In this document: one piece after another, positions 7,701 through 63,180 of the stretch
How positions within the stretch are numbered: the stretch's first letter is position 1
Layout of the letters: the number at the start of each line of letters is the position of its first letter
Source of the DNA: Echinarachnius parma
Taxonomy: Eukaryota; Echinodermata; Echinoidea; Clypeasteroida; Echinarachniidae
NCBI GenBank assembly: GCA_037951105.1
Contig: JBAMJV010009470.1
Location: 69,501-133,500, forward strand
Reading direction: 5' to 3'
Length of the DNA: 64,000 bases
Translations under genes and position numbers: made by a program
The notes under the pieces: model-generated
Database searches by the model: none
What the model was told of the DNA's origin: nothing
What the model saw: the letters and a program-made list of their open reading frames with translations, nothing else

Positions 7701-10700
7701 TATTGTTGGGGGTGTGCCAGTGTTTGGGGCAGAGTTATGTGGTTTGTTTTGGAGTTATGTTCAATAAAGCATACACAGGAAAAGCAAGTTCTCAATATAT
7801 CTTTGTGGGAGTCAAGATAAAAAGTTTAAAAAGGTATATTCAAAGGTTGGGGTAAGCTTTCCAACAGGTGGGGGGCATTCCCCTTAAACCCTTTGTATAG
7901 CTCTACACAAATTCAGGTAATTGACTTCAAGGCACAAACATTGTGACCTTCTCTGCCACTGGTCACAGCCACAGGTCGTAAATCTGTCATAACTACTGCA
8001 GTTTACTTGAGCCAATCCCATTTTTTTCTTATATGTACCAGTATACAGATTTGTTATTATTACTGGAGAAAATTTGTTGCCAAAACCGAGAATTATACAA
8101 ACAAAGGGCCAATTCTCGGACCGCTCGTTTCCCGGTTTGAAGGCCATAATCGCCGGGAATCCCTTCTCGTCTCTGATCGGATAACAGCACTATATATACA
8201 CATGTTGTAGTATGGTGATGCGTTTTCCAATTATTATTTTTTTCTGGAAATATATTTTTCTGAACTTGTTGCTGAATAGACTACTAAAGATGTTACCTTT
8301 CATTTAGAAGAATATTAGTTTTGGGTGGTGGAACCCTTTAATGATTGTATCGCTGGCTTACTTGAATCTGGGTGGTTCCATGGGGTCCTTCTGTGCTTCC
8401 ACCATCCTAATCACCCTCTGCTTGGCTCCAGAGTTGAAGGCAACACCCTGCTGAGACGGTGTGTACCTGTATAGGAAACATGTCAAACAATTCATCTTTA
8501 ATATTATTTAGATATAGATAGGGCATTGAGAAGATGTTTCACTCAAAGACTTTTACCTCCTATCAATCTACCTTTTTTTCCAATTAATCCCCCCTTTTTT
8601 CTTCTTCTTTTTGTTTACTGTATGTACAAAAGTGTGTTATAAACAATATCCTTTGACTGATTACCCTTTTAACCATAAAAAGGCTTGGGGCTGGCATACA
8701 GTGCATACATATCTCATATAAGTCAAACAGCCATGCTATTAAAGGATTAATATAGAAGATAAGACACATTTGTACTAAATTTAGTTAGACGGCCTTGGTT
8801 CATAATCATACAAGCATGCTAGCTTAGTAAAAAGTATATTTTAGATGATAAGGCTAAGTAAGCAACACAAAATGTTCTTAAAGGGATCTAGTAACTTTGT
8901 TGACATGTGCAAAACTGATGAAGGGTTGATGCAATGTATATTGTTGTTATCTCATATGTTCACAGGGTATTGTGTGAAAATTTCAAGTCAAATGGACATT
9001 GCATGGCCAAGTAATGAGCAAAAATGCAAAGTGATATTCACTAACTCACTGCACTCACTTTGTACACGGTAAGAAAAACTCTGGGGGAGTTTTTCTTATC
9101 TGAATACTTCAATCGTACATATCTTTGTAACAAAACAGAAATTTGAAAAACCGAAACCGGTCCCATGATTTTATTTTCAATACGAATACAACAAGGTATG
9201 ATGGAACCGCTAGAATTAAAATTTTATTTTGAGGATTTGGACAATGTTACTAAGTCCCTTTAAGCCCTATGCAGACAGAGCCGACTCGACCCGATCCGAC
9301 TGGTTTCAATCAGGCTAGAGGTGGGCCCGGTCGGTTGGATCCGTTTCATCGTGTTGAATCGGCCCCAACTGGCATCCGACTGTCTCTCGACTGGCAAAAT
9401 GTGTGTCGCGAGGAACTGAAAACTGAGTCGATCCGAAAGAAAACTAGTCGAATCGGGTCGAGTCGGCTCGTCTGCAGACGGCTTAAGTCGCTTACTACGG
9501 CTATCTGAGTAAGCATTTATTACTTATTAAGTAACCTTGCTGGCAACTAAAAGGGTGTCTCATCGCTTACTTAGGCCTATCATCTAAAGTACACTTAAAA
9601 TACCACTACGCTAGTGAGGTTTATGGGCCCTGGATGTCATGGTTGCACTGAGTGGGATATTACCTGATGTACTGTGCTGGGGCTCTCTGCTCTGCATGAC
9701 GGACGGGCAAAGCTGCAGAGATCTTGGAGTTGACAATCTTCTCAAGTGCTGCCCTCGTCTTTTCGGCCGTCTGAACAGTGAGAAGGGAAAAACAAATGTT
9801 CATGAATGATAATTTACTGTAAGCTTTCCATTCAATTTTTTATTTTTTATTTAGTTCCCCCATTGGTTAAGCCTAACTGGGCAACGAAATTTGATTACAT
9901 GTATGATGATTACCATTTCTAAAATTGACACAGATTATCTTTCTTATGAGAATCAAGGGGTAAATTGCAGGCTACACCCATTTGATCTACTTCCATTATA
10001 TCTACAAGCAACAATAGAGTGCAGAGGCTTTGAATAATGAAAACGGATAAGGATTACAGTAATATGTTATGATTCAGGTTAGGTAGGTTTTTCGGTTGGG
10101 GTCAAGTTTTGAGTTGGAGATATAAAGTTTTGTGCATTATGTAGAAGACCAAATGGTGTAGACTAAGTGAACCGAACCCATTTGCCCATGTGTGGTTTGA
10201 CCCTGCCTACACTGCTGAAGACTAGTTCTTACCTCTTCAATGGCCTCCTCATCAGGTCGTTGCAGTTCTGGATCATCATCATCTCCCATCTCTCTCGGTA
10301 ATAGATCCTCTGGTCTGGAGTGGACAACCTGGGGGCACACAAGATATACAAATCAAATGTTACTTATGTCATAAATATATTTATTTTTAAGAATAGTGTC
10401 TGATGCACAGAGAAAATGTTGTTAGGGCTGGAAACTAAAACTGGCCCACTGTAGACAGTAGAGAAATAAAGGTAATTTACCACCCAGTAAATTTCAGTAA
10501 GTTTCAGGCCACCAAAAATGGAAAGCAAATTATTCTACTGCTGAACTGGGCCAGTGTCAACAATATAATGTCACATAAAGTGCAAGTGTAATGCTGTACA
10601 ACTCTTTTATTTTTCCTTTACTGCTGGTTTCCGTAAGATTCACATGAATATGGTTGAATGCATCTTAAATCGTAACTGACAATGTAAACTATCAAAAGTG

Positions 10701-45000: not shown

Positions 45001-48000
45001 CATCTTCTTTGGAGTGAGGACCCTTGTGAAACATTCCACCTGCCTTTTCTGGAAATAGTATATCCTGGACTTGAGTGATGCTCAACTTTGTGCTGCTTTT
45101 CAAGTGAACCCTTCCAGCCTCCAGGCCCATATTATGATATTTAAAATGGCTGAATATTGTTTTAGAGCTTATTTATTGCACCAATGTGAATGAATGTGAG
45201 GTGTTAATCCCCCCCCCCCCCACCCCCCCCCCCCCCCCCCCCCCCCCAAGCCTGCACTGGAAACACTATCTCCAAACCTTGAGTGATGCTCAACTGGGGC
45301 CCACTCTTCTCTATGAGTTAACTCTTGCATTGCTGAGCTATGAGGAGGATATAGTGTTATAACAAATGTACTGTGCTCATGTGAATGTAAGGGTTTATAT
45401 GAACCCCTTCCTCTAGAGCTGAAGTCAGTGGTTGACTGAAGCATGGTACAAACAAGCCAAAGGGAAGAACTAGTCCAATTTCTTTGCATGAAAAAGACAA
45501 GTAAGGGAACAAAGTTTTAAAAATGCAATAATGATAACATCCCTAAAGCTTCAATGTGGAAATGTGATGCGTTGTTTGCCAGTAAATGCCCATGACTACA
45601 ACAAGTCATAATTTGCGACTTGTCAGAGGTGATCTTTGGCCTCCATTTTCCCTCATGATTTTTTCCCTGGTCCTTTCTGAGAGTCAAATAGGAAAGAAAA
45701 GATCAGTAGTGTCAGGAGAAGAATGTGGTGAAAAGAGAAACGTGCTGAGTTAAAGAGAGTATACATATCAAAGAGAATCTTACTCTCTGTAATCAAATAT
45801 CTACAAGTATGAACAAGAGTATCAAGAAAAGGCCACTTTTATTCTTACATTGTAAGGAAAATGGTACATGTTTTGAGAACATTGTGATCTGAAATCTTAC
45901 AAGCAGTGTTTACAGAACTACATCTAGTTTCTTATGTTGCCAGATTTTACAATCTTTCTAACTTTTAAAGACATTTATCATTTCAATTATTTTATTTTCT
46001 TAGTTGCTATGTTGTGTTTTAAAATATCTAAATAATAGTCTCATAGTCTCATGCTTCAAAAAGAAAATTGTTTCAATGGCCGTAACTGTTAGTTTTTTAC
46101 AAACCAAACTTTCAATGTACAAATACACTTTGTACTTTTTAAAATGGTACCATTACCAAGTACTTATTGTATTCTTTTCTCTTTTCCACTTTCTGTTTTG
46201 AGCAGCTGAGATTGGTAACTTTGACCCTGCCAAGCACACAGTGGAATTCCTGCAGCAACACTATGTACTTCTACCCAAGGTGAGTTGACCTCTGTCGTGA
46301 CCTTGAGAATGAGGGAGAGGGGAAAAGAGAGGAGGAGAGAGGAAGGTAGAGCTAGAAGGAGAGGGTAAAACAGAAGAAAGGAGAGAGGGAGGAAAGAAAA
46401 AAGAAGGAGAGGGGGAGAGGCTGGGGATCATGGATGGAATGTTTTTTTTTTAGTGTGTGTGTATGTGGAGGAATTTGTATTTTAAGGTTTTTATTGAGAG
46501 TACTACAAGACATATTTACATACTGTAGTATAAATATAACAATACTATACATGCGATAATATAAACAAATACAATTATTTACAAATCGAGACAAATTGGG
46601 AAATTCACTCTCCTACAAGTGGCCTAGTTATATTACTTATCTTATATACTACCATCCATCTTTGGTTTTTTAGAAAACTATATAACATAATGATTTTTTT
46701 TATCTGGCAAGCATCAACTACTGTATATCCACATGCGACACACTTGGGCTACTACTACACAAGTTATTTTGAAGAAAACAAAGGGACATTGAATTGAATT
46801 GAATTTATTTAATAAAGTGAAAATCATATTCAATATCTATGGATGTGCATAGTGGATTCATGGCCACCTTGGGTCTAGCCTCTAGGTTGAGAAAGAATGC
46901 AGAGACATGGTGGAGAATGAGGGGGGGGGGGGGGGGGGGGGGGATGAGCACAATACACAAAGTTCTATACATGTACATTGCACTGGTATGTAATATAGTA
47001 TTTACTCTTCATGGTACTGTAGGTCCACAGTAACATGTGTACTGCAAGCCAAGGTAAGTTGACCTCAGCAGTGACCTTGATAGTGTTGGGTGATCCTTGG
47101 GCTTGGGTCCAGTTGGAGAAGAGAGAGTGAGAAAGAAGGGGAGAGTGTAAGATGGCAAGATGGTGATTTGAACGTGAATGTCAAAAGTGCTCTTTAACAG
47201 CATTTATATACATGTAGTTATGTACATACATTTTGTTTCCTTCATAAATTGCAGATACTATTATAAAAGTATTTTGTTTAGAAATCAACAGAATGAGGAG
47301 AATCAGACAGAAAGACAATGATAACCAACAAAGTTCTTCAGTTCTTCTATATTTCTTTGAATCTCCAGAACATGACCCCAGACAGCGAGAGTCTCTCGGA
47401 GTTGCTAATGAAAGTGCTTCACGAGTACCAGGCATGGGGGGAGGGGGGGGGGGGGGAGGGGGAAGGGGAAGGGGAAGGGGAAGGGGTAAGAAATCTTTTA
47501 ACCCATCATATTAGTTTATCCATAGTTCTGCAGTTCTACTAATGTATTTCTTTGCTTCCTCCAATCCAGAACATGACCCCAGACAGTGAGAGTCTCTCGG
47601 AGTTGCTAATGAAAGTGCTTCACGAGTACCAGGCATGGGGGGGGGGGGGGGGGGGAGGGGGAAGGGGAAGGGGAAGGGGAAGGGGTAAGAAATATTTTAA
47701 CCCATTATATTAGTTTATCCATAGTTCTGCAGTTCTACTAATGTATTTCTTTGCTTCCTCCAATCCAGAACATGACCCCAGACAGCGAGAGTCTCTCTGA
47801 GTTGCTAATGAAAGTGCTCCATGAGTACCAGGCGAGGGCAGGCATGTCTACTATGGGCAGTGAGCTTGCGTACATCGAGCATGCTTCTAAGCTAGAGGGC
47901 TATGGGCAAGAGAGCTTCCCTGCCAAGGTAAGGATGTTGTTGTTGTTGTTATGTTGATGTGGATGAAGTTTTGTTCATGTTGTATTTCATGTTGTAGTTG

Positions 48001-49127
48001 GTGTTGATTTTGTTGTAGTGTGGCAGGCTTTTAAGCAAGCAGGCTTCTAAGCTAGAGGGCTATGAATAAGAGAGCTTCCCCACCAAGGTAAGGATGTTAT
48101 CAATGTCGTCGTTGATCTGGATGAAGTGCAGTACATACATTTTTTAGTACAAATTCAGTCAGATGCTGTAGAGCCTCCAAAGATGAATCATCGTATGTAG
48201 CTGATTTAACCTCTCTTTCATTTCTATACAACCATGTAAAATACATGTACTTTTCAATAACAATTATAACTCAGGAATAGTGTCAGTTCTCCTTTGTAAC
48301 TGACTGTATACATTTGCAGTCATATAACTTTATTAGTACACATTTTCTTCTCCAATAATAGCATGGGATATTGTAGAATTGTAGAATGTTTAAGTACTTT
48401 ATAGTTTATCTCTCTTTCCTGCTATTCAACAAAGTTTTATCGGACAGTCTACTGAGCACTTGGCTGTGTGTCCTAAATGGTAATAATACTTGGTTTGTTA
48501 CTTTGTTTATTCTGTGAATTGGTTGTGAGACCGTTTGATTGTGAGTACAAGTAGGGCAGGAAAATAACCTTGTATATTGTCTAAAAATAAAATATGTACA
48601 TTTATATAACCCTGAAAATAAATAAATAGAATATTTCTGTAACAAAGGCATAGACACAGACAAAAGTACAAAGACAAATTTTGATTTAGCATTTTTAGAG
48701 TGTGTCCAACCATAGTCCAACCATTCAAAGTGATTCCCTCGTGTAATGAAAAACGATAACAGGAACAATTATATCTAGAGATGGTATCTTGTAAGTGTCA
48801 ACATTCCATACATTGTTTGTGGTTTGTTTTCTCCTTGTTCACAAATAGTTTCTTAGCAACTGTATCAATTACTTTTTTCTTCATGTGATCTCTGTGTGTG
48901 TTTTTGTGTTGATGATGACTGTGGGAATGAGCTATTTCTGAACTCTTAAACAAAATCAAATTATACAATCATGCTGGCAACTATACTATAGGCTAATCTC
49001 CCTTATTCAAGCTACTTTCATATTAAATTGATGAAGCAAACATTACAAGCAAAATAGAATCAATTACGAGCGCTTAGAGGCCATTTTGCAGTTGCGCTTT
49101 TTAAATACCTATTTTTATTATTTATCA

Positions 49128-49323: not shown

Positions 49324-49783
49324 GTAATTATTATTATACTGATTAATTCATTTTGATTCCTTTTGTTTGTGTATTCAGGATGAGTCTGGTAATGAACTGT
49401 TCATCAGTGCATCATTCACAGGCCTCATCGTCAAGCATCTCAACAGACAGGAGACTGTGCATTTCCAGTAAGTATCAGGGGAAAATCATACAATATATTT
49501 TATTTTCTGGGGCTACTGTAATAGATAACATTTATATTAAAATTAATACTAATGTTTCAAAGTGCTGTATTATGTAACATTATTACCCTGGCTTTAGATC
49601 ATTAGCTACCCTGGTATTAAAAGGTGCATCAAGTAATTCAAGGGTCCCGTTGCAGAAATAATAATAATTAACAATTCTTATATAGCGCATAACTCATAGT
49701 TTCAAAACATGTCCCTATGCGCTGTAGAGAAAGGAAATACACGTAGAAAGAGATTATCTGGGTTTCAGTAAGAGAGAGAGGGG

Positions 49784-49822
<39 letters not shown>

Positions 49823-52800
49823 TATTAAGTATTAAATAAGTACGTCTTTAAAGCAATCTTAAACTTATCAATAGTGTCAATATTTTTCAAATGTTCCGGG
49901 AGATTATTCCATAAGGTTGAGGCAGTGTGAGCAAAGCTGCGTTCACCATATGATTTAGTGTAAACTGGTGGAATAACAAATAATTTTTTCTTATTAGAAC
50001 GAAGATTTCTTAGTGGTATGTGCAATGACAACAATTCTTTTAAATAAGATGGTGCAAAATTATAAAAGCATTCATATGCAAACAACAACATTTTAAATGA
50101 TATACGAGATTTAATAGGGAGCCAGTGTAAATTACGTAAAATATGTGACACTGATTCGTGTTTCCTTATACCATAAATAAGTCGAGCAGCAGAGTTCTGC
50201 AGAACCTGCATCTTTTGTACCTGTCGAGCTGGGATCCCAGAAAGAAGGCTATTACAAAAGTCGAGATGACACATAACAAATGCGTGAATCATGCGCTCCG
50301 TAGTTTGTTTATCTATCAGGTTACGAATCTTTCCGATTTTATGAAGTGCAAAAGATGCAGATCTACATTTCTGTGAAACAAAATTGTCCATAGTAAAACT
50401 GTCGTCAAATATTGCACCCAAGTTTCTACATTTCTTAACAGAACTGACTTGTGTGCCATCCAAGTTAATTGATGGTATACGATCTGTAGAACGAAAACGT
50501 GAGGATATGTGAAGAAATTCAGTCTTGTTGCTATTGAGCTTAAGACCGTTTACCTGTGACCATTCGTTAATTGCTTGAACGCAATCAACCATTTGTGAAA
50601 TAACATCTTCTACATTTGACTGTTTAAATGCTATATACAATTGAGTGTCATCAGCGTAAAACATTTTATGAACATTATGATTATCAATTAGTGCCTCTAA
50701 TGGCGCAGTGTATAGTGTGAACAACAGGGGCCCTAACACTGATCCTTGAGGTACCCCTTTGGAAACACGATATATTGATGATTGTTCATTCTCTATAACA
50801 ACAGTGTGGGTTCGATTTAATAAATAAGACTCAATCCAGTCAAGTGCCCCACTGCAGATACCAAACTTTTGCGACAATCGATGCAACAAGACGTCATGCT
50901 TTATGGTATCAAACGCAGACGAAAAATCTAAAAGGACAAGAATAACTTCTTCACCTTTATCAAGTGTCAACAATATATCATTTGTTATGCGCAGTAAGGC
51001 AGTTTCTACACTATGGAATGGTCTATACCCAGATTGAAATTTTGCATGGAGTTCGTGAACATTTAAGTACGTTTGCAACTGTGATGCTGCCATTCTTTCT
51101 AACGTCTTGGCAAAAAACTTCAAATTTGCAATAGGACGAAAATTCTTAAGTTCGTTAGAATCACAATATATACAATTGATTGTAAGTCGGCAACTTTGCG
51201 CGTTTCAACTAATCAGATTCGAGCATTTAGAAAACACGAGATCTGACTTACAATTAATTGTAACTTATTTGAATTATTGATTTATTTTGTTATTGTTAGA
51301 AGTCTCAAATACTGTGCTTTTTGTGCTTTTGAATGTTTTATTTCAAGGCTACGAATGGATTTCCAAAATTGTCAGGTCCAACTTACGAGTTAAGTTCGAC
51401 TTTATAGAATCTTTGTGAAACACAATGGTTATTTAATTCCCTATAGGATATCATCAACTACAGATAGTAATAATGATAAAATACCATACTGATCCCTAGA
51501 ACAATTTGTGACTGGATATAGCAAGCCCTACACTTGTCGGTAAAAATCAAGGTAATTTTCAAGCCATTATAAATGCCGCATCACAAGCTTTAAATATTTG
51601 GCAAAGGTATGATCGTTTCAATTTTTACTAATATGAGTCTTTTACATATGTTATGTGAACTTATAATGCCCATTTCTCCAAAACATGAATTACCAGCAAG
51701 TGCAGGGTTTTGCTATATCCAGTCAAGTTTACTTGCTAGTCGTTTTCATGTCAAGTGAACCCTATCTTGTTTCTCATGATATGTGGGCCCATCTCCCTCA
51801 CTCTTTCAGCAAACCCTTTGAATAAATAAACAAGTTTGTGACAATAGAACCAATTTCTGAATTATGTCTAACTAACATTATAGTTATTACTGATGACATT
51901 TACGATCTTACATTGTGCACTAGCTTTAATTTATATCAACACATTTGTTTCTTTTGTGCATTAATTTTTTATGGGTCTGCCACTCTGCCTTTACTTAGAA
52001 AAAAACAACACTTTTAATGGGCAATACAAAAATGATACTTCACTTTGTTGTGCAGTGTCAAAGGTCTGTTTACACTGTCTGTCCTTGCTCTCATTTCAAG
52101 CTTGAAATTAGACAATTTTTACTGATTTGCTTTGGTGCATGTTATTAATAAATCATAATTGATATACACAGAATTTTTCATGGAAATTATCATCTTTGAT
52201 TGCTAATGGCCTAGTCCCATTGCACCTTTTCTCCCTCTATTGCCTATTCGTGTGACATCCGGAAGGTACTAGCAGATACTGGCAGGAAACAAAATGATGC
52301 ATCCAAGTTCGGAATGGACTAGTAGGATATTTTTAATTTGGCTCCGTTTCCGATGTCTGCTTGTTCATCTATGGCCATTTCGTTGCTAGATACTGACCGT
52401 TTCGCCACATTTTGGTTCAGAAAGGAAACGGAAGGAAAAATGGTGCAGTGGGACTAGGCCAATAGAATTTGATTCACACAATCAGACACTTTTGGAATGT
52501 TTGCAGCTGCAGAATGAAAAACAAAGATTTATTGTAAATGTGTGCTTACGTACACATCCTGTCCTACAATTATTACTTGTCTTTCCTTGATTTTTTGTCT
52601 CAGTCTTTTGGAATTTAAGTAGGAAGTTTGAAGTATATGATTCATAATTTGTTTGAAATTCCAAAGTCAAACAGAAGTTTGTCAACATTCCACAGTTTGC
52701 CCTTTTTGGCCTATTTGTTTGCATAACTTTTTCATACATGCATTCTCTTTCTGACTCGTTATGTCAATCTCTTTTTTTCCTTTCTCTTTTTATATATTTA

Positions 52801-58800: not shown

Positions 58801-61800
58801 TTAAATAACTGCTAGTGGCTTACATGCTCCTAGTGGAGTTGTAAATATGCAATAGATGATTGTGTGGATTTGAACTGTATCCAATGATCAAGGATGTGAA
58901 GCTAGAATAGTGCATCACACAATTAATGATGTTCATTATTTGTTATAAACCTGTTCTAAAAATGTTTTGTAAATTCATTGTGATACTGTACCTGATGACC
59001 AAGGGTAATAATGCGCCTCTGAATTAGGCAACTAGATAGATGGCGCTCTATAAAAGCTATATATTATTTACCACCCCTCAACCACTTCTTGTTTCCCACA
59101 AAAGTAATTTATCTGTATAAAGTGAACCTTTCTATAAATACCGTTTGCCATAAATACCACATTTGTGCCTCCTGCGATGGTCTATGTAGACTGGTTTGAC
59201 TATATTCTACAATTGTTTTGACAGAGGAAAATTCTTGAGAAGCAGCTGAGAGAAGGCCAGGTGTTCACAGAGTATGAGCAGATTACCAAGAAGAAGGCTG
59301 GAGTAGTCTGCTACACAGCTAGCCTTCCTGACAACGTCAAGAGGAATAGGTTCAAGGATGTGTTGCCCTATGAGGTAAGCCACTGAAATCAAAACCTTGT
59401 GCAAAGAATAGGGTCAGTGCATACAGAAACATACAGAAATTAAGCTGAAGCTGAACGTCAATTACAAACAAAAAGTTGTCATAAGCCATTAAATTGAGAT
59501 TTTAAAAAGTAAAGTTGTTCATTTTGGAATATTGCAAAATATGCATTTCATATTAATGCAAAGATTGTGTGGCTTTAAAATGCAAATGCTTAAAACGGCT
59601 AGTCCTTTGTAAGTTGATAACACAGTGCTTAATCCCTTGCTCTCTGTGAAATTTGGAATGGTTTTGCTCTTTTGCAGGACTGTCGGGTGGAGTTATCGGG
59701 ATCAAAAGAGAATAGTGGTGGATACATCAATGCATCGACCATCAAGGTGCCCATCGCTGGTGAGATGCTTCACTACATAGCCGCCCAGAGCCCCACAAAG
59801 AGCACAGCTAGTGACTGGTGGAGGATGGTGTGGGAACAGGGAACACAGGTCATCGCCATGCTGACAAAGCTAGAGGTGAGTTAGGGATGGTGATGATGAT
59901 GATGATGGTGGCGATGGCGATTGTGATTGTGATTGTGATGATGATGATGATGATGATGACGACGCCAGTGGTGATGGTGATAACGATGATGACAACGACC
60001 ACGACAGTGATGACGACAATCTATATTTAATTTCAATATCATCCCTCACTTATCAGTAATAATTCATCTGTATTTCTATACATTCTTCATTCTGTACATA
60101 ATCTTCAGAAATATTTGGTGATTATGTTTAAAGGTATCATTGTTTCTCCAATTAAATTAGGAGAGGAGAAGAAAGAACATGCCATAAGTTTTTTCTCAGA
60201 TATGTACATGTATATTTTTTGTAAACATGTCACCATTATGATTGAAAATAAGTTAGCATATTGGTTATTCTTAATTTTCTCCCCTACTAGGAGGGCGGCA
60301 AAGAGAAGTGCTTCAGGTACTGGCCCGACTGTACGTCACCCAAAAAGAACACTGCAGAGTTTGGACCGGTGAGTGGATTATTAAAAAAGTTCAGTGTTTG
60401 ACCTGTTGAATACATAGCTTTGCATGCAGATACATGGGTATCTAGCGGGAGTCAATAGGATTAGATTATTAATAGTATTACAACCTGATTCAAATCTTTT
60501 GAAGAGATCGTCCTTTTTTCTGAATCCATTTTTACCTTGTTCTTTTTATGCTTAGTCATGCAGTCCAATTATATTTTAAAATTCCATATGGATGATTAAA
60601 ATTTGTGTGAGAAAAGAAATAAGGAAACACAGAGAGGGGAAATTGGAAAGGATTCATTTTGTTTATGAATGTGAAAACAGCTTTACTTGTAGTTTGATAA
60701 TACTACTAATAATAATGATAATAATACTAATAATAATAATAATAATGACAGTTATACATTGCGTAATGCAAACAAGCCTCTAAACGCTTTAGAGAAGAAG
60801 TAGACAGATGATTGTGGAAATAGAGTTAAGTTTGAGCTATGACTGGTAGCATTGTTACGATGTTCATCTCCCTTCCTCCATGTAGTTCCGTGTGATTGGC
60901 CAGTTCAGCAATGATTCCGGGGGCTACATCACGAGTGGTCTGACATTGCGTCACATCCCCTCCGGTGAGCAGCGCACAGTGTGGCACCTACAGTATACCG
61001 ACTGGCCTAACCAGGGATGCCCCAATGATGTCCATGGATTCCTGTGTAAGTAAAACAAATCTACTCATGACGTTTTAAATTTATCTGCTCGTGACATTGC
61101 AAATTTAAAAAGTGATTGTTGAATGATGCATAGATTTATGTGTAAGTACACAAAATCTATACATGGGGATTTTGTTTAAGGTTAACATTTTTCAATTTGA
61201 CCCAATGCTGTACAGTGCATTTCTTTACAAAGGGTTCTGATCAAAACCCTCTTAGTAATTTTACTGGTACAAGCCCTTTATATTTATATTATCATCATTT
61301 CATTCCCCTTTTAATACCAGCTTTCTTGGAGGAGTTCCAGTCAGTGTGTCGCCATGCCAACAGCATGAATGAGAAGGAGGTTGGCCCGCCCCCAGTGGTG
61401 CATTGCAGCGCCGGGGTGGGGCGCACAGGGGTCCTGCTGTTGACTGATGTCATGATTAGCAGCTTGGAGCACAATGAGGTAAAGCTTGCATTCATTTTCT
61501 TTTGTGTTTCATGCTGGTTTAACTGTTGATAATTGCAAGAATAATATTTTCTAGAAAAGACAAGAGTCTAATGCCCAGCGCAGACAGAGCCGACTCGACT
61601 GGTTGTCATTCCGATCGGCTCAGTTTTCAGTGCCTCACGACACACATTTTGCCAGTCGAGAGACAGTCGGATGCCAGTTGGGGCCGATTCAACACGATAA
61701 ATCTGCTCCGACCGACCAGGCCCAACTCTAGCCTGATTGAAACCAGTCGGATCGGGTCGAGTCGGCTCTGTCTGCGCCGGGCTTTACTGTTGACTGATGT

Positions 61801-62371
61801 CATGATCAGCAGCATGGAGTATAATAATAATGTGCCTCAGAATAGTCGTATTAGATGAGATGGCAGGGAATATATGCTATGAAGTATTATTCATCAGTAT
61901 AAGAATAAGACACATTATGGGGACCTGGTAGGAATATTTCCTTGAAATGCTTTATGCACTAGGCTATTGCAGCTCGGCTAAAGCCAGGGTAATAATATAT
62001 GCATTTGAAACCTTATTATAACGAGCACTTTGGGCCAATTGAATTTACCTCGTTATATCAGACATCTTGTTGCTTAAAAATAATAAAATGTGTAGAACCC
62101 GTGACCTGTGAAATTACCTCGCTATATCCAGTACCTCGTCAAAGCAGAGCTCATTATAAAGAGGTTTGACTGTACATACAGTATGTGAACATCATTAGTA
62201 TTACATTATTACATTTCCTATTTGAACTCTGTTTGTTTGCAGGAAATCAACATTCCCAAGATGCTGAGCATCCTGCGACAGCAGCGCATGTTGATGGTGC
62301 AGACCGTGGGACAGTACTCCTTTGTCTACAAGGCCCTCATTGAATCACTGAGGAACACTCGCCTAGTCTGA
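32239..62371 (+). CDS. PTPN21: FERM-domain protein tyrosine phosphatase, PTPN21/PTPN14/Pez type (15 coding exons)
   Basis: The start [20 protein letters not shown] matches the PTPN14/PTPN21 N-terminus. Fifteen exons with closing phases give 1424 residues, against about 1170-1190 in the two human paralogues; the extra length is in the linker. Order: FERM domain (about 20-340; [37 protein letters not shown]), a Ser/Pro/Gln-rich linker (about 345-1130) with conserved [18 protein letters not shown], a PPPY motif (629-632) and SSPDLVSRR, then the PTP domain (about 1150-1424) with [10 protein letters not shown] (Cys1358, Arg1364) and QTVGQY. Family members act at junctions and in Hippo signalling through WW-domain partners (known for PTPN14 and Pez). 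Odd: the WPD loop is W-P-N (Asn1318). Introns carry partial copies of its exons. An invertebrate single-copy ancestor of PTPN14/21 is the likely status. Confidence 0.95.
33915..34898. mobile_element. hAT-like non-autonomous element with exact 8-base duplication
   Basis: Ends TAGGCCTGAGTC and GACTCAGCCTTA are inverted, flanked by GTTCATGT on both sides (33907-33914 and 34899-34906). Near both ends sit CCGGGTCCCGAT and GGTCGGGAACCGG-like subterminal repeats. An 8-base duplication is typical for hAT. No transposase frame is present in the 984 bases. Confidence 0.9.
35108..35131. repeat. Poly-C run (24 bases)
   Basis: Uninterrupted C homopolymer in intron 1 of the phosphatase gene. Confidence 0.95.
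35221..35654. mobile_element. TTAA-flanked MITE, family A (copy 5, inverted, best preserved)
   Basis: It runs from TTAAAGGGTACCATC to GGTGGTCCCCTTTAA with all family blocks in reverse orientation, including GTTCCGTAAGTGGTGGTAAT and CGTACGCGTGAATTGCATTG. It can serve as the uninterrupted reference for the split copies. Confidence 0.9.
37389..37558 (+). CDS. PTPN21: Phosphatase exon 2 (FERM F1/F2)
   Basis: It encodes [20 protein letters not shown] then [20 protein letters not shown] and ends HTLRHEMT plus two bases of an Arg codon. [14 protein letters not shown] is nearly invariant in the family. Confidence 0.95.
37630..37830 (+). pseudogene. Degenerate fragments of exon 2 3' end in intron 2
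   Basis: 37630-37680 (ATGCTATACTCC…ACCCTCAGGCATAAAATGAC) resembles the end of exon 2 (ATGCTCTACACC…ACCCTCAGGCACGAGATGAC). A second piece near 37808-37870 repeats the splice-donor context CCAGGTGAGACATT and following intron. Neither can be read as an exon. Confidence 0.6.
38005..38303. mobile_element. TTAA-flanked MITE, family C (short copy)
   Basis: It ends CAAAACTCAACTATCCCTTTAA exactly like the copy at 29357-30310, with the matching AACCAAAACCTGCA-type segment inverted near 38260. The left end is degenerate. Confidence 0.65.
38338..38485. repeat. Perfect 61-base inverted repeat with 26-base loop
   Basis: Arms 38338-38398 and 38425-38485 are exact reverse complements by eye (TCTGTCTCTGTGATTTTTTC … GGATGCA). 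No ORF and no MITE family copy elsewhere in the window. It lies just right of a family C element. Confidence 0.9.
38843..39694. mobile_element. Non-autonomous element with GGCCCG-rich subterminal repeats (copy 2, inverted)
   Basis: Ends CAACCCTCGAAATTAGC and GTTAATTTCAAGCATTG, flanked by GGATACT on both sides (38836-38842, 39695-39701), another exact 7-base duplication. It is the reverse of the copy at 14002-14794 and has a long A/T homopolymer inside. Confidence 0.88.
39702..41787. other. Intron 2 sequence, little recognised
   Basis: AT-rich intron. A partial family B-like segment starts near 40986 (GGGAACAAGTAACATTGTC). An A-run sits near 40378-40389. No exon or RNA gene was recognised. 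Confidence 0.4.
41788..42338. mobile_element. TTAA-flanked MITE, family C (copy 3)
   Basis: It starts TTAAAGGGGTAGTACAGTTT and ends AAACTAAACTACCCCTTTAA; nearly collinear with 24697-25242. Confidence 0.88.
42422..42476. repeat. (TG)n tract followed by poly-G
   Basis: Short TG repeats and a T-rich segment lead into a G run of about 16 bases near 42461-42476. Confidence 0.8.
43334..43378. repeat. (TTC)n microsatellite
   Basis: About 15 uninterrupted TTC units upstream of exon 3; a polypyrimidine/polypurine tract. Confidence 0.92.
43671..43768 (+). CDS. PTPN21: Phosphatase exon 3 (FERM F2)
   Basis: It encodes [20 protein letters not shown] then [12 protein letters not shown]. Human paralogues show YQYYLQ-KKD-LEG at this place. 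The first base completes an Arg codon; donor CAAG|GTAAGA. Confidence 0.95.
43887..44020. mobile_element. Partial TTAA MITE, family B
   Basis: It starts TTAAAGGGATCTAGTAACAT as the complete copy does, but its far end could not be placed with certainty; the similarity may continue to about 44250. Confidence 0.5.
45040..45310. repeat. Local duplication around a long poly-C tract
   Basis: CTTGAGTGATGCTCAACT occurs at about 45070 and 45280, each preceded by a similar CTGGAAA(C/T)A…TAT stretch. Between them is C13-A-C25 (45209-45247). The two copies have diverged. Confidence 0.6.
46206..46279 (+). CDS. PTPN21: Phosphatase exon 4 (FERM F2)
   Basis: It encodes [20 protein letters not shown] and LLPK after completing an Ala codon. 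74 bases; acceptor GAGCAG and donor AAG|GTGAGT. Confidence 0.93.
46921..46943. repeat. Poly-G run (23 bases)
   Basis: Uninterrupted G homopolymer in intron 4. Confidence 0.95.
47034..47095 (+). pseudogene. Degenerate copy of exon 4 3' end and donor
   Basis: The segment GTACTGCAAGCCAAGGTAAG TTGACCTC…GTGACCTTGA follows the end of exon 4 and the first 25 bases of intron 4 (CCCAAGGTGAGTTGACCTCT…GTGACCTTGA) with a few changes. The donor GT is kept. Confidence 0.7.
47369..47485 (+). pseudogene. Partial exon 5 copy 1 with in-frame G/E-rich extension and a donor
   Basis: It starts after a CTCCAG acceptor with [22 protein letters not shown], as the real exon 5 does, then departs into a GGGGA-type repeat coding W-G-E and Gly/Glu repeats and reaches GTAAGA. 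From acceptor to donor it is 117 bases, i.e. in phase with its neighbours. Whether it is spliced is unknown; it may be an unused duplicate. Confidence 0.6.
47570..47684 (+). pseudogene. Partial exon 5 copy 2, out of phase
   Basis: It is almost identical to copy 1 and begins after AATCCAG. Between acceptor and GTAAGA it is 115 bases, so inclusion would shift the frame. The difference lies in the poly-G run, whose length is unreliable in assemblies. Confidence 0.6.
47769..47927 (+). CDS. PTPN21: Phosphatase exon 5 (FERM F2/F3)
   Basis: It encodes [20 protein letters not shown], then QARAG and [11 protein letters not shown]. The last motif matches DGYGEESYPAK-type sequence of human PTPN21. 159 bases, phase 0 at both ends. 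Unlike its two upstream copies it continues through the family-conserved C-terminal part. Confidence 0.94.
48040..48115 (+). pseudogene. Degenerate copy of exon 5 3' end and donor
   Basis: GCTTCTAAGCTAGAGGGCTA TGAATAAGAGAGCTTCCC copies the exon 5 end but reads TAT GAA TAA, a stop, in place of TAT GGG CAA. The donor CCAAGGTAAGG and following intron bases are kept. Confidence 0.85.
48116..49120. other. Intron 5 sequence, nothing recognised
   Basis: No exon-like or repeat family segment was recognised; one 120-codon minus-strand ORF here shows no conserved features. Confidence 0.4.
49121..49335. repeat. Long (ATT)n microsatellite
   Basis: About 210 bases of mostly ATT units with interruptions (ATC, ACT, GTTGTTG) directly before exon 6. 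Confidence 0.92.
49379..49467 (+). CDS. PTPN21: Phosphatase exon 6 (FERM F3)
   Basis: It encodes [20 protein letters not shown] then LNRQETVHF plus two bases. This corresponds to the DS-G-DISIGACLEGIFVK region of human PTPN21. Donor is CCA|GTAAGT. Confidence 0.93.
49505..49658 (-). repeat. SINE-like repeat with AAAGCCAGGGTAATAATG block
   Basis: On the minus strand it contains AAAGCCAGGGTAATAATGTT and CAGCACTTTG, as in the repeats near 3290-3480 and 61840-62000. It abuts the 3' end of the LINE fragment. Confidence 0.5.
49659..51180 (-). mobile_element. 5'-truncated non-LTR retrotransposon with intact reverse transcriptase ORF
   Basis: A minus-strand frame of at least 432 residues (49825-51123, open further to about 51180) without stops carries [17 protein letters not shown] at its open start, [29 protein letters not shown] and the catalytic YADD, followed by a [13 protein letters not shown]…[10 protein letters not shown] domain and a C-terminal [10 protein letters not shown]. 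These are CR1/L2/Jockey-type ORF2 features. The 3' end reads GCGCTATATAAGAATTG then an ATT-type tail; a T-run lies between ORF and tail. The endonuclease and 5' half are missing, so it cannot move alone. Confidence 0.92.
51181..51428. mobile_element. MITE remnant (…CTTTGTGAAACAC end) next to the LINE
   Basis: Its right part (TTTTATTTCAAGGCTACGAATGG… AGAATCTTTGTGAAACAC) matches the right end of the complete element at 62559-62852. The inverted pair CAATTGATTGTAAGTC / GACTTACAATTAATTG occurs at its left side. The LINE probably inserted into this element. Confidence 0.6.
51429..52207. other. Intron 6 sequence, nothing recognised
   Basis: AT-rich intron without recognised exon, RNA or repeat family. 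Confidence 0.4.
52208..52460. mobile_element. MITE with GGCCTAGTCCCA ends (copy 1)
   Basis: The left end GGCCTAGTCCCATTGCACC and right end GGTGCAGTGGGACTAGGCC are inverted; AAT stands on both sides as a 3-base duplication. A related copy is at 63689-63879. Confidence 0.85.
52461..54600. other. Remainder of intron 6 with G/C runs
   Basis: It contains a G run near 53069-53085, a C run near 53891-53900 and a G run near 53950-53967. At about 53335-53400 ATCTGAATTTGGATACT and its near-inverse TATCCAAATTTGGACGATTG form a small hairpin. No exons were recognised. Confidence 0.4.
54601..54652 (+). pseudogene. Degenerate copy of exon 7 start with acceptor
   Basis: TTCTGTAG followed by ATGTTACAAGGTGATGATCA CCTGGCCACAGTTGGCGACC parallels the true exon 7 start (TCTATAG then ATGGCACGAGGTAGTGAGCA TGGGCCACAATCGGCGAGCG). 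It lies 80 bases upstream and stays recognisable for about 45 bases. Confidence 0.7.
54688..54858 (+). CDS. PTPN21: Phosphatase exon 7 (FERM F3)
   Basis: It encodes [20 protein letters not shown], then [20 protein letters not shown] and [12 protein letters not shown]. Human paralogues have RWHDIANMSHNK and DMETAKYIWRLC here. Donor is CAA|GTAAGT. Confidence 0.95.
55224..55387 (+). CDS. PTPN21: Phosphatase exon 8 (start of linker)
   Basis: It encodes [20 protein letters not shown], then a Ser/Met/Gly-rich stretch ending GEGTSSD. It connects FERM to the linker and is weakly conserved; phases fit exactly (1 in, 1 out). Confidence 0.85.
55388..56209. other. Intron 8, nothing recognised
   Basis: AT-rich intron of about 820 bases; no repeat family or exon-like segment was recognised. 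Confidence 0.4.
56210..58512 (+). CDS. PTPN21: Phosphatase exon 9 (large Ser/Pro/Gln-rich linker)
   Basis: One 2303-base exon, coding residues about 367-1134. Conserved islands shared with human PTPN14 include [44 protein letters not shown] and [13 protein letters not shown] at 629-632 is a WW-domain ligand as in PTPN14-YAP binding. TTSQLSLD occurs twice and NSQLSLPE once. Residues 927-982 form eight Ser-Pro heptads. The stretch is largely disordered in character. It ends at AGG|GTAAGC; reading through gives a short tail and a stop at 58561, so intron retention would truncate the protein before the PTP domain. Confidence 0.94.
57889..58056 (+). repeat. Eight tandem Ser-Pro heptads within exon 9
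   Basis: Every seventh residue pair from 927 on is Ser-Pro: [56 protein letters not shown]. At DNA level this is a diverged 21-base repeat (AGTCCC core). Confidence 0.9.
59225..59374 (+). CDS. PTPN21: Phosphatase exon 10 (PTP domain start)
   Basis: It encodes [20 protein letters not shown] then [15 protein letters not shown] and [10 protein letters not shown]. The pTyr-loop motif NRYxDVLPYD of classical PTPs has Phe for Tyr here; the human paralogues also deviate at this place. 50 codons, phase 0. Confidence 0.95.
59678..59875 (+). CDS. PTPN21: Phosphatase exon 11 (PTP domain)
   Basis: It encodes [20 protein letters not shown], then HYIAAQSPT and [25 protein letters not shown] and FW-MVWEQ are classical PTP motifs; the usual YIA-QGP reads YIAAQSP. 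198 bases, phase 0. Confidence 0.95.
59886..60020. repeat. (GAT)n-type microsatellite
   Basis: GATGATGGT/GATTGT/GACGAC repeats start 10 bases after the exon 11 donor. Confidence 0.9.
60291..60368 (+). CDS. PTPN21: Phosphatase exon 12 (PTP domain)
   Basis: It encodes [20 protein letters not shown] and TAEFGP. K-C-x-RYWP is the classical PTP motif. 78 bases, phase 0 at both ends. Confidence 0.95.
60690..60750. repeat. (AAT)n microsatellite
   Basis: AATAATAATGATAATAATAC-type repeats, followed by a GCGTAATGCAAAC…CTAAACGCTTT segment that resembles LINE 3' ends. Confidence 0.8.
60886..61045 (+). CDS. PTPN21: Phosphatase exon 13 (WPD loop, here W-P-N)
   Basis: It encodes [20 protein letters not shown], then [20 protein letters not shown]. 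The codon at 61009-61011 is AAC (Asn1318) where classical PTPs have the general-acid Asp. Surrounding residues are normal. Donor is CTGT|GTAAGT. Confidence 0.95.
61321..61478 (+). CDS. PTPN21: Phosphatase exon 14 (catalytic P-loop)
   Basis: It encodes [20 protein letters not shown] then [20 protein letters not shown] and [11 protein letters not shown]. The signature HC-x5-R is complete with Cys1358 and Arg1364. Donor GAG|GTAAAG. Confidence 0.97.
61573..61782. mobile_element. GC-rich MITE with GACTCGACCCGATCC ends (copy 2, inverted)
   Basis: Ends GCCCAGCGCAGACAGAGCC and GGCTCTGTCTGCGCCGGGC are inverted repeats; the body is collinear with the reverse of 9264-9480. It is followed directly by a copy of the exon 14 end. 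Confidence 0.85.
61787..61829 (+). pseudogene. Partial copy of exon 14 3' end in intron 14
   Basis: CTGTTGACTGATGTCATGAT CAGCAGCATGGAGTATAATA repeats the last 42 bases of exon 14 with about six changes. It lacks the P-loop and has no donor after it. Confidence 0.85.
61840..62000 (+). repeat. SINE-like repeat with AAAGCCAGGGTAATAAT block
   Basis: Contains TTCCTTGAAATGCTTTATGC and CTAAAGCCAGGGTAATAATA in the order seen, inverted, at 3290-3480. Confidence 0.45.
62243..62371 (+). CDS. PTPN21: Phosphatase exon 15 (last; Q-loop and stop)
   Basis: It encodes [20 protein letters not shown] then [22 protein letters not shown] and stop TGA at 62369-62371. Gln1402 and Gln1406 of the QTxxQY motif are present. 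The human paralogues end similarly in NSRLI. Confidence 0.96.
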   Translation, partial: EINIPKMLSILRQQRMLMVQTVGQYSFVYKALIESLRNTRLV

Positions 62372-63180
62372 TAATGGTGATTTCATGTCATAATGTCCTC
62401 CCGATGCCCTGTTGTATGCCCTGATCGTAGTGCAAACTGTCGGACAGTGCACCTTTGTCTACAATGAACTCGTAATAATTCCTAAGAAACACAATACGCG
62501 TATGATCATGGTGCCTTTCATGTCTCATTGCTCTCTAGATGTCTTCTTGCATTCCAGGGGGGTGTTTCACAAAGAATCTTTGCTGAACTTAGCTCTAAGT
62601 TGGACCTAAAAATGATGGAAAGCCATCAGTTTCTTTGTAAAATTGTTAAAACAGTTCTTTTTAAAAGGCATATATTTTGAAATAAAAAATCAGTAATCTT
62701 TGTTATTATCAAAGAGCCTTGAAGTAATTGATATATATTCATGTCGGAAGTTTCAATACTTACATTTTTGTTGCTTTAAATATGTTTTATTCCAAGGCTA
62801 CAAATGGCCTACCATAATTTAAAGTTCAACTTAGTATCTTTGTGAAACACTCTTCTGACCGTAGTACAACTCGTAAAATTCCTAATAAACACAAGGCGCG
62901 TATGATCATGGTGCCTTTTTATGTCATATCCCCCTACCTTTGCGACAGTACACCCTTTGTCTACAATGCTCTCATCGTATCCTGGAGAAAGACTTGTCAG
63001 ATTAGTGCGTCTCATTCCTCTACAATCATCTGAGGAATGTTCTCTATCAAGGCGCTTAATATATTTTTGAGGAACTTGGGCCTCGTCTGATCATATTGCA
63101 GACTCGGGGAGAGAACACCTCTGTCTTCAAGGCCCTCGTTGAATTCCTGAAGTATGCTCGTCTCATCTGATCAGCTTCTC
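62372..63180 (+). other. 3' UTR / flank with degenerate copies of the exon 15 end
   Basis: At least three further versions of the last ~90 coding bases plus following bases occur: 62423-62545, 62857-63010 (two fused partial copies) and 63090-63172. The last still reads TRGENTSVFKALVEFLKYAR LI and stop. A MITE (62559-62852) lies between the first and second. AATAAA occurs near 62680 and 62884. Confidence 0.75.
62559..62852. mobile_element. MITE with GGGTGTTTCACAAAGA ends
   Basis: The left end GGTGTTTCACAAAGAATCTT and right end TTAGTATCTTTGTGAAACAC are inverted repeats. A truncated relative borders the LINE at 51181-51428. Confidence 0.8.

What the first reader, a model, noticed from the sequence alone, without database searches (positions are those of the whole stretch)
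47369..47684. Two partial exon 5 copies upstream of the real one; the first is a potential in-frame new exon
Seen: three tandem units about 200 bases apart each start with acceptor plus the same 21-22 codons. In the first two, the exon runs into a GGGGA repeat that ends in a GTAAGA donor. Copy 1 is 117 bases between splice sites (phase 0), so splicing it in would add 39 residues including a Gly/Glu-rich tail; copy 2 is 115 bases and would shift the frame. This looks like exon birth by tandem duplication plus a repeat-made donor.
Basis: partly seen in the sequence, partly recalled or inferred. Interest (0 to 1): 0.7.

Follow-up and report, generated by a model that had tools for sequence, protein, structure and literature searches.

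The report
Tandem-copied exon starts, probable pseudo-exons
In an animal gene for a PTPN21-like phosphatase, the start of one exon has been copied twice in tandem and could in principle be spliced as a new exon, but such tandem copies look common in this genome and nothing seen so far shows that the copies are used.

Summary
Units starting at 47369, 47570 and 47769 share an acceptor plus 65 nt of exon 5 of a PTPN21-like FERM-phosphatase gene. In the first two, the exon start runs into poly-G/(GGGGAA)n ending GGG|GTAAGA, giving candidate exons of 117 nt (in frame) and 115 nt (frameshift).

Tandem duplication across the intron 4/exon 5 border is clear; exon birth is not shown. In 19 stretches (179,905 bp) of the same genome I found 19 tandem arrays of period 60-450, in 13 of 19 stretches. 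Partial local copies lie near 5 of 15 exons of this gene; the older exon 5 end copy carries a stop. Copy 1's acceptor lacks the CTAAT motif that copy 2 and exon 5 share, and its frame depends on a G run. The better-equipped copy 2 would give a frameshift and stop.

Best reading: a young tandem duplication leaving decoy splice sites and pseudo-exons, with the geometry of published intron gain by tandem duplication (PMC4974935). Copy number (two partial copies or one) cannot be settled without reads, and no RNA data were available.

The parts
46206..46279 (+). Exon 4 of the PTPN21-like gene, ends in phase 0 (AAG|GTGAGT)
47028..47080 (+). Old partial copy of exon 4 end plus donor and intron start; decoy donor AAG|GTAAGT after 47053; has an in-frame TAA and a 1-nt gap by reading the alignment
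   Evidence: 81.5% over 54 columns to 46253-46306; donor score 12.01 against 11.96 for the real exon 4 donor
47369..47485 (+). Copy 1: 65 nt of exon 5 start, then G6-A-G14-A-G5 and GGGGAA repeats, then GTAAGA; 117 nt, in frame
47486..47569 (+). 84-nt spacer (would-be intron) with acceptor and CTAAT at -31
47570..47684 (+). Copy 2: same exon start, then G19-A-G5 and GGGGAA repeats, then GTAAGA; 115 nt, frameshift
47685..47768 (+). 84-nt spacer before exon 5; differs from the first spacer at 2 sites; its last 60 nt are identical to those before copy 2
47769..47927 (+). Exon 5, 159 nt, phase 0-0, part of the FERM central (F2) lobe
48038..48127 (+). Old partial copy of exon 5 end plus donor and intron start, with a stop
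   Evidence: 83.7% over 92 columns; exonic differences 2 synonymous, 3 non-synonymous, 1 stop
49379..49467 (+). Exon 6

Best explanation
A young local tandem duplication in an animal PTPN21-like gene. It placed the intron 4 acceptor plus the first 65 nt of exon 5 next to a poly-G/(GGGGAA)n tract and an 84-nt spacer that ends in a second acceptor, upstream of the intact exon 5; the 199-bp unit was then repeated once more. A tandem duplication that straddles an acceptor leaves the intact exon downstream and a truncated decoy upstream; one that straddles a donor leaves the decoy downstream. The copies in this gene that contain a splice site (exon 4 end, exon 5 start twice, exon 5 end, exon 14 end) fit that geometry. 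The G tract happens to be followed by TAAGA, so each truncated copy has both an acceptor and a donor. I infer that the copies are mostly skipped pseudo-exons. If one is spliced, copy 2 is the likelier and would give a frameshifted, prematurely stopped message; copy 1 would put 39 residues into the FERM F2 lobe. Shown: the repeats, the splice-site letters, the phases, the genomic background. Inferred: skipping, the order of events, absence of function.
For: Array of period 199. Mosaic pattern: copies 1 and 2 share the exon version, copies 2 and 3 share the acceptor version, as expected if the unit was repeated later. Background: 19 merged arrays of period 60-450 in 179,905 bp, covering 11,861 bp, in 13 of 19 stretches; the window has 1. 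Partial local copies at 5 of 15 exons tested (4, 5, 14, 15, 16), of which 3 (4, 5, 14) include a splice site, against 29 of 200 non-exonic control windows (Fisher p 0.067). The exon 5 end copy has decayed (2 synonymous, 3 non-synonymous, 1 stop). Copy 1 lacks a branch-point-like motif; copy 2 frameshifts. In GFPT1 exon 9, exonic G runs reduced inclusion through hnRNP H/F (PMC10514471, abstract and passages).
Against: The copy donors score well: 8.86, reached by 26 of 3,568 GT in the window, the two copies included (recalled human-like weights), and higher than the real donors of exons 6 and 15. All differences from exon 5 in the first 66 nt are synonymous: 4 of 4 for copy 1, 5 of 5 for copy 2. 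If copies and exon had drifted apart for equal times with the copies unconstrained, the three shared differences would all fall on the constrained branch with probability 0.006; youth plus allelic divergence explains this, but constraint on the copies would too. The G4 survey that I cite as limiting also reports, in its abstract, a minigene in which a G4 promotes exon inclusion (PMC9065059).
Confidence: 0.7

Rival explanations
1. The copy number is partly an assembly artefact: two alleles with different G-run lengths were laid end to end, so the animal has one truncated copy (or alleles with different numbers) rather than two. The pseudo-exon reading stays, with fewer copies.
For: Copies 1 and 2 differ at 1 exon site, and their spacers at 2 sites, plus G-run make-up, as alleles might. 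Published work finds false exon gains from divergent haplotypes and sequencing errors (PMC9516828, passages). A 171-nt exon 5 query found no separate second contig for the locus, all 4 matches being on this contig, which is compatible with merged haplotypes.
Against: No Ns in the window. The mosaic pattern and the distinct acceptor of copy 1 need at least one real junction of exon start to G tract. Similar arrays are widespread in the sample, though that sample comes from the same assembly.
Confidence: 0.2
2. Copy 1 is a real, newly born in-frame alternative exon that adds 39 residues with a Gly/Glu-rich tail to the FERM domain.
For: Acceptor, 117 nt, phase 0, good donor, no stop; all differences in the exon-derived part are synonymous.
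Against: No branch-point-like match; frame depends on a G run; the insert falls inside the FERM F2 lobe, and with it the Pfam FERM_M match drops from 25.9 to 24.3 bits (cut-off 23.8) and covers exon 5 only; exonic G runs can silence exons. No RNA evidence.
Confidence: 0.06
3. Copy 2 (or both copies) works as a poison exon: its inclusion introduces a stop and lowers the amount of the phosphatase.
For: Copy 2 has the same last 60 nt of acceptor region as exon 5, a good donor, and shifts the frame to a stop.
Against: Any new out-of-frame exon does this; no evidence of regulation or conservation; G runs are unstable.
Confidence: 0.06

Closest known systems
Intron gain by tandem duplication across an intron-exon border (potato RdRp gene, Ma, Lan and Niu 2016, PMC4974935; abstract, introduction, results read)
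   Same: [quoted passage not shown] acceptor signals are inherited; a GTAAG donor becomes available; another short tandem duplication (83 bp) lies in the same gene.
   Different: In potato the donor came from the exon; splicing was supported by 106 RNA-seq reads and the duplication by 53 WGS reads. Here the donor lies at the end of a G-rich tract and nothing is proven.
Tandem exon duplication / mutually exclusive exons (PMC9013439, abstract; Kondrashov and Koonin 2001, seen only as a reference in PMC2592719)
   Same: Copies of one exon beside it in the same gene; the exon is phase 0-0.
   Different: Only the first 65 of 159 nt are copied here; no full exon copy.
False exon gain by haplotype duplication in assemblies (PMC9516828, passages)
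   Same: Near-identical exon copies beside the original, differing as alleles might.
   Different: Three units with a mosaic pattern and a G tract; copy 1 has a distinct acceptor. Not excluded for copy number.

Membership tests
Intron/exon gain by border-straddling tandem duplication | Tandem copy includes intron 3' side and exon 5' side | tested here: met
Intron/exon gain by border-straddling tandem duplication | A 5' splice site is available in the upstream copy | tested here: met
   GGG|GTAAGA in both copies, score 8.86 with recalled weights
Intron/exon gain by border-straddling tandem duplication | New junctions seen in RNA | not testable with these tools
   no RNA data for this organism
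Intron/exon gain by border-straddling tandem duplication | Duplication confirmed in reads and absent in relatives | not testable with these tools
   no reads; the own genome has no relatives held
Tandem exon duplication (mutually exclusive exons) | Copy spans the whole exon with its matching donor | tested here: not met
   65 of 159 nt copied; donor lies after the G tract
Assembly false duplication | Copies differ only as haplotypes do, with haploid read depth | tested here: inconclusive
   few differences between copies 1 and 2; read depth not available

The most novel reading that the evidence does not exclude
In this genome the turnover of 60-450-bp tandem duplications is so high that exon borders are copied again and again. 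Introns of ordinary genes then carry many decoy acceptors and donors (here partial copies at 5 of 15 exons, with a splice site at 3 of 15), some strong enough to be spliced, so the genome is a natural experiment in which the birth of exons and introns by border duplication can be watched at many stages.
Probability: 0.12. Interest if true: 0.5.

Novelty: new member of a known kind. Interest (0 to 1): 0.22.

Why it matters
If copy 1 or 2 were spliced, it would be a snapshot of exon and intron gain by tandem duplication before loss or fixation, with a donor at the end of a G-rich tract. More likely it is a caution: in genomes with many short tandem arrays, gene predictors may call such truncated copies as exons.

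Tried and rejected
Poly-G as the cause of tandem duplication: arrays in the sample were not richer in G/C runs than random placement in any of four settings (for runs of 8 or more with a 50-nt pad, 4 of 19 against 3.4 expected, p 0.43). With 19 arrays this is weak. C. elegans dog-1 lesions at G-rich DNA are mainly deletions (PMC8078821, passages).

G-tract donors as a common product: of 100 G runs of 10 or more in window plus sample, 50 are followed directly by T, but 0 of 100 have GGGTRAG within 24 nt (the present donors lie further downstream, past the GGGGAA repeats, and so are not counted). (GGGGAA)2+ occurs in 0 of 19 sample stretches.

Origin of the spacer: no homology to the sequence upstream of copy 1 (local score below the shuffle mean, p 0.92); apart from its own copies and the copy-1 acceptor, only matches of 15-19 nt at E 0.05-0.18 in the held sequence. 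The whole-genome search for it did not complete.

RNA quadruplex control: ViennaRNA with quadruplexes gives -115.0 and -123.5 kcal/mol for copies 1 and 2, against -25.7 and -22.0 without. One survey found G4 enrichment at splice sites restricted to some vertebrates (PMC9065059, section 15), while its abstract reports a minigene in which a G4 promotes inclusion. I give this little weight either way.

Border copies as an exon-specific process: 5 of 15 exons against 29 of 200 control windows, p 0.067. Not significant, and exon conservation makes their copies easier to see. Exon 7 was not found and not tested; several exon borders used were approximate, set by eye.

Literature: (listings). One search (at least 3 of 5 terms on partial or exonic duplication) returned 0 papers, which is a strict search; I claim nothing about absence from print.

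Full report
What is there. The gene is PTPN21-like: the exon 4-6 translation matches three PDB chains of tyrosine-protein phosphatase non-receptor type 21 (8gxe, 8y8y, 8gvl; E 1.7e-15 to 1.9e-15) ahead of protein 4.1 and merlin, and a phosphatase exon lies downstream (Y_phosphatase E 1.8e-9). That PTPN14 is the close relative of PTPN21 is recalled. From open frames read by eye I placed 15 coding pieces between 32239 and 62371; exon 7 was not found.

Check of the observation. The stated coordinates and lengths hold. Copies 1 and 2 carry 65 nt of the exon 5 start, then poly-G and GGGGAA repeats (G6-A-G14-A-G5 in copy 1, G19-A-G5 in copy 2), then GTAAGA. Copy 1 is in frame. Copy 2, or both copies together, leads to a stop within exon 5. 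The G-rich tail contains no stop in the frames read, so the phase of copy 1 is set by G-run length; one G more or less breaks it.

History read from the letters. Copies 1 and 2 share three exon differences from exon 5; copies 2 and 3 share the acceptor region, while that of copy 1 differs by substitutions and gaps of 3 and 6 nt. The simplest order is a join of exon start to G tract-spacer-acceptor-exon 5, followed by one more repeat of the 199-bp unit. The exon differences are all synonymous (copy 1: 4 of 4; copy 2: 5 of 5 in 66 nt, of which the last position sits at the breakpoint). A random change here is synonymous with probability 0.23; the chance that three differences all fall on the constrained branch is 0.006 if the copies had drifted freely for the same time. 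So either the copies are young and the differences are allelic or arose before duplication, or the copies have themselves been constrained. The exon 5 end copy shows ordinary decay (2 synonymous, 3 non-synonymous, 1 stop). The exon 15 end copy has 2 synonymous and 2 non-synonymous differences.

How it would be spliced. With recalled human-like donor weights, the copy donors score 8.86. Seven real donors (exons 1-6 and 15) score 7.13-11.96; the exon 14 entry was misplaced by one base and is disregarded. In intron 4 the best of 81 GT sites is the decoy after 47053, a copy of the exon 4 end (12.01; exon 4's own donor 11.96); the two copy donors come next. Copy 2 has exactly the 60 nt that precede exon 5, with CTAAT at -31; copy 1 has no yTnAy match within 60 nt, but exon 4 has only one, at -43, so this is not disqualifying. 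The introns after each copy would be 84 nt. In one human exon, exonic G runs reduced inclusion through hnRNP H/F (PMC10514471, abstract and passages); whether this holds in this animal is unknown. I therefore expect skipping, with copy 2 rather than copy 1 as the leak.

Is it special. Nineteen stretches (179,905 bp) of the same genome hold 19 merged tandem arrays of period 60-450: 10.6 per 100 kb, in 13 of 19 stretches, covering 11,861 bp or 6.6%. Two of them (L020:7044-7326 and L021:6458-6750) also carry a long G or C run recurring with the unit. The window has one such array, the 10-kb stretch L024 upstream of it none. G/C runs of 10 or more are common: 46 per 100 kb in the sample, 27 in the window. 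In the gene, 5 of 15 exons tested have a partial local copy (exons 4, 5, 14, 15, 16; in 4, 5 and 14 the copy includes a splice site), against 29 of 200 control windows, a difference that is not significant (p 0.067). An array at one exon border is therefore expected from background.

Whole-genome check. A 171-nt exon 5 query found 4 matches, all on this contig (the tool scores only the best candidates). The second whole-genome query, for the spacer, did not complete (16 tries), so whether the spacer is a dispersed repeat is open.

Known relatives. [quoted passage not shown] abstract, introduction and results read), where junction and genomic reads supported the case. Here those tests are missing. 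False exon gain through assembly of divergent haplotypes (PMC9516828, passages) remains a live rival for copy number.

Verdict. The most likely explanation is ordinary: a young border-straddling tandem duplication giving pseudo-exons, with exact copy number uncertain.

Noticed in passing
62297-63171: The end of the last coding exon recurs in degenerate form downstream of the stop codon at 62430-62524, 62941-62994 and 63097-63171 (73-78% identity).
   Followed up: partly
61024-61165: Copy of the exon 14 end with donor about 98 bp downstream (78%), keeping GTAAGTA.
   Followed up: partly
61571-61784: Element with long terminal inverted repeats (MITE-like, read by eye) between exon 15 and a partial copy of its end at 61787-61825; a related inverted copy lies at 9262-9459 (90%).
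   Followed up: no
49825-51204: Reverse-transcriptase ORF (RVT_1, E 2.4e-34) on the minus strand in the intron after exon 6, next to an A37 run on the plus strand at 49784-49820.
   Followed up: no
47053: Decoy donor AAG|GTAAGT in intron 4 scores as high as the true exon 4 donor; a pseudo-exon ending here could be spliced.
   Followed up: partly
L005-L023: The genome sample is rich in tandem arrays (about 15 copies of 156 bp at L015:6847-9266) and in G/C runs of up to 26 nt.
   Followed up: partly
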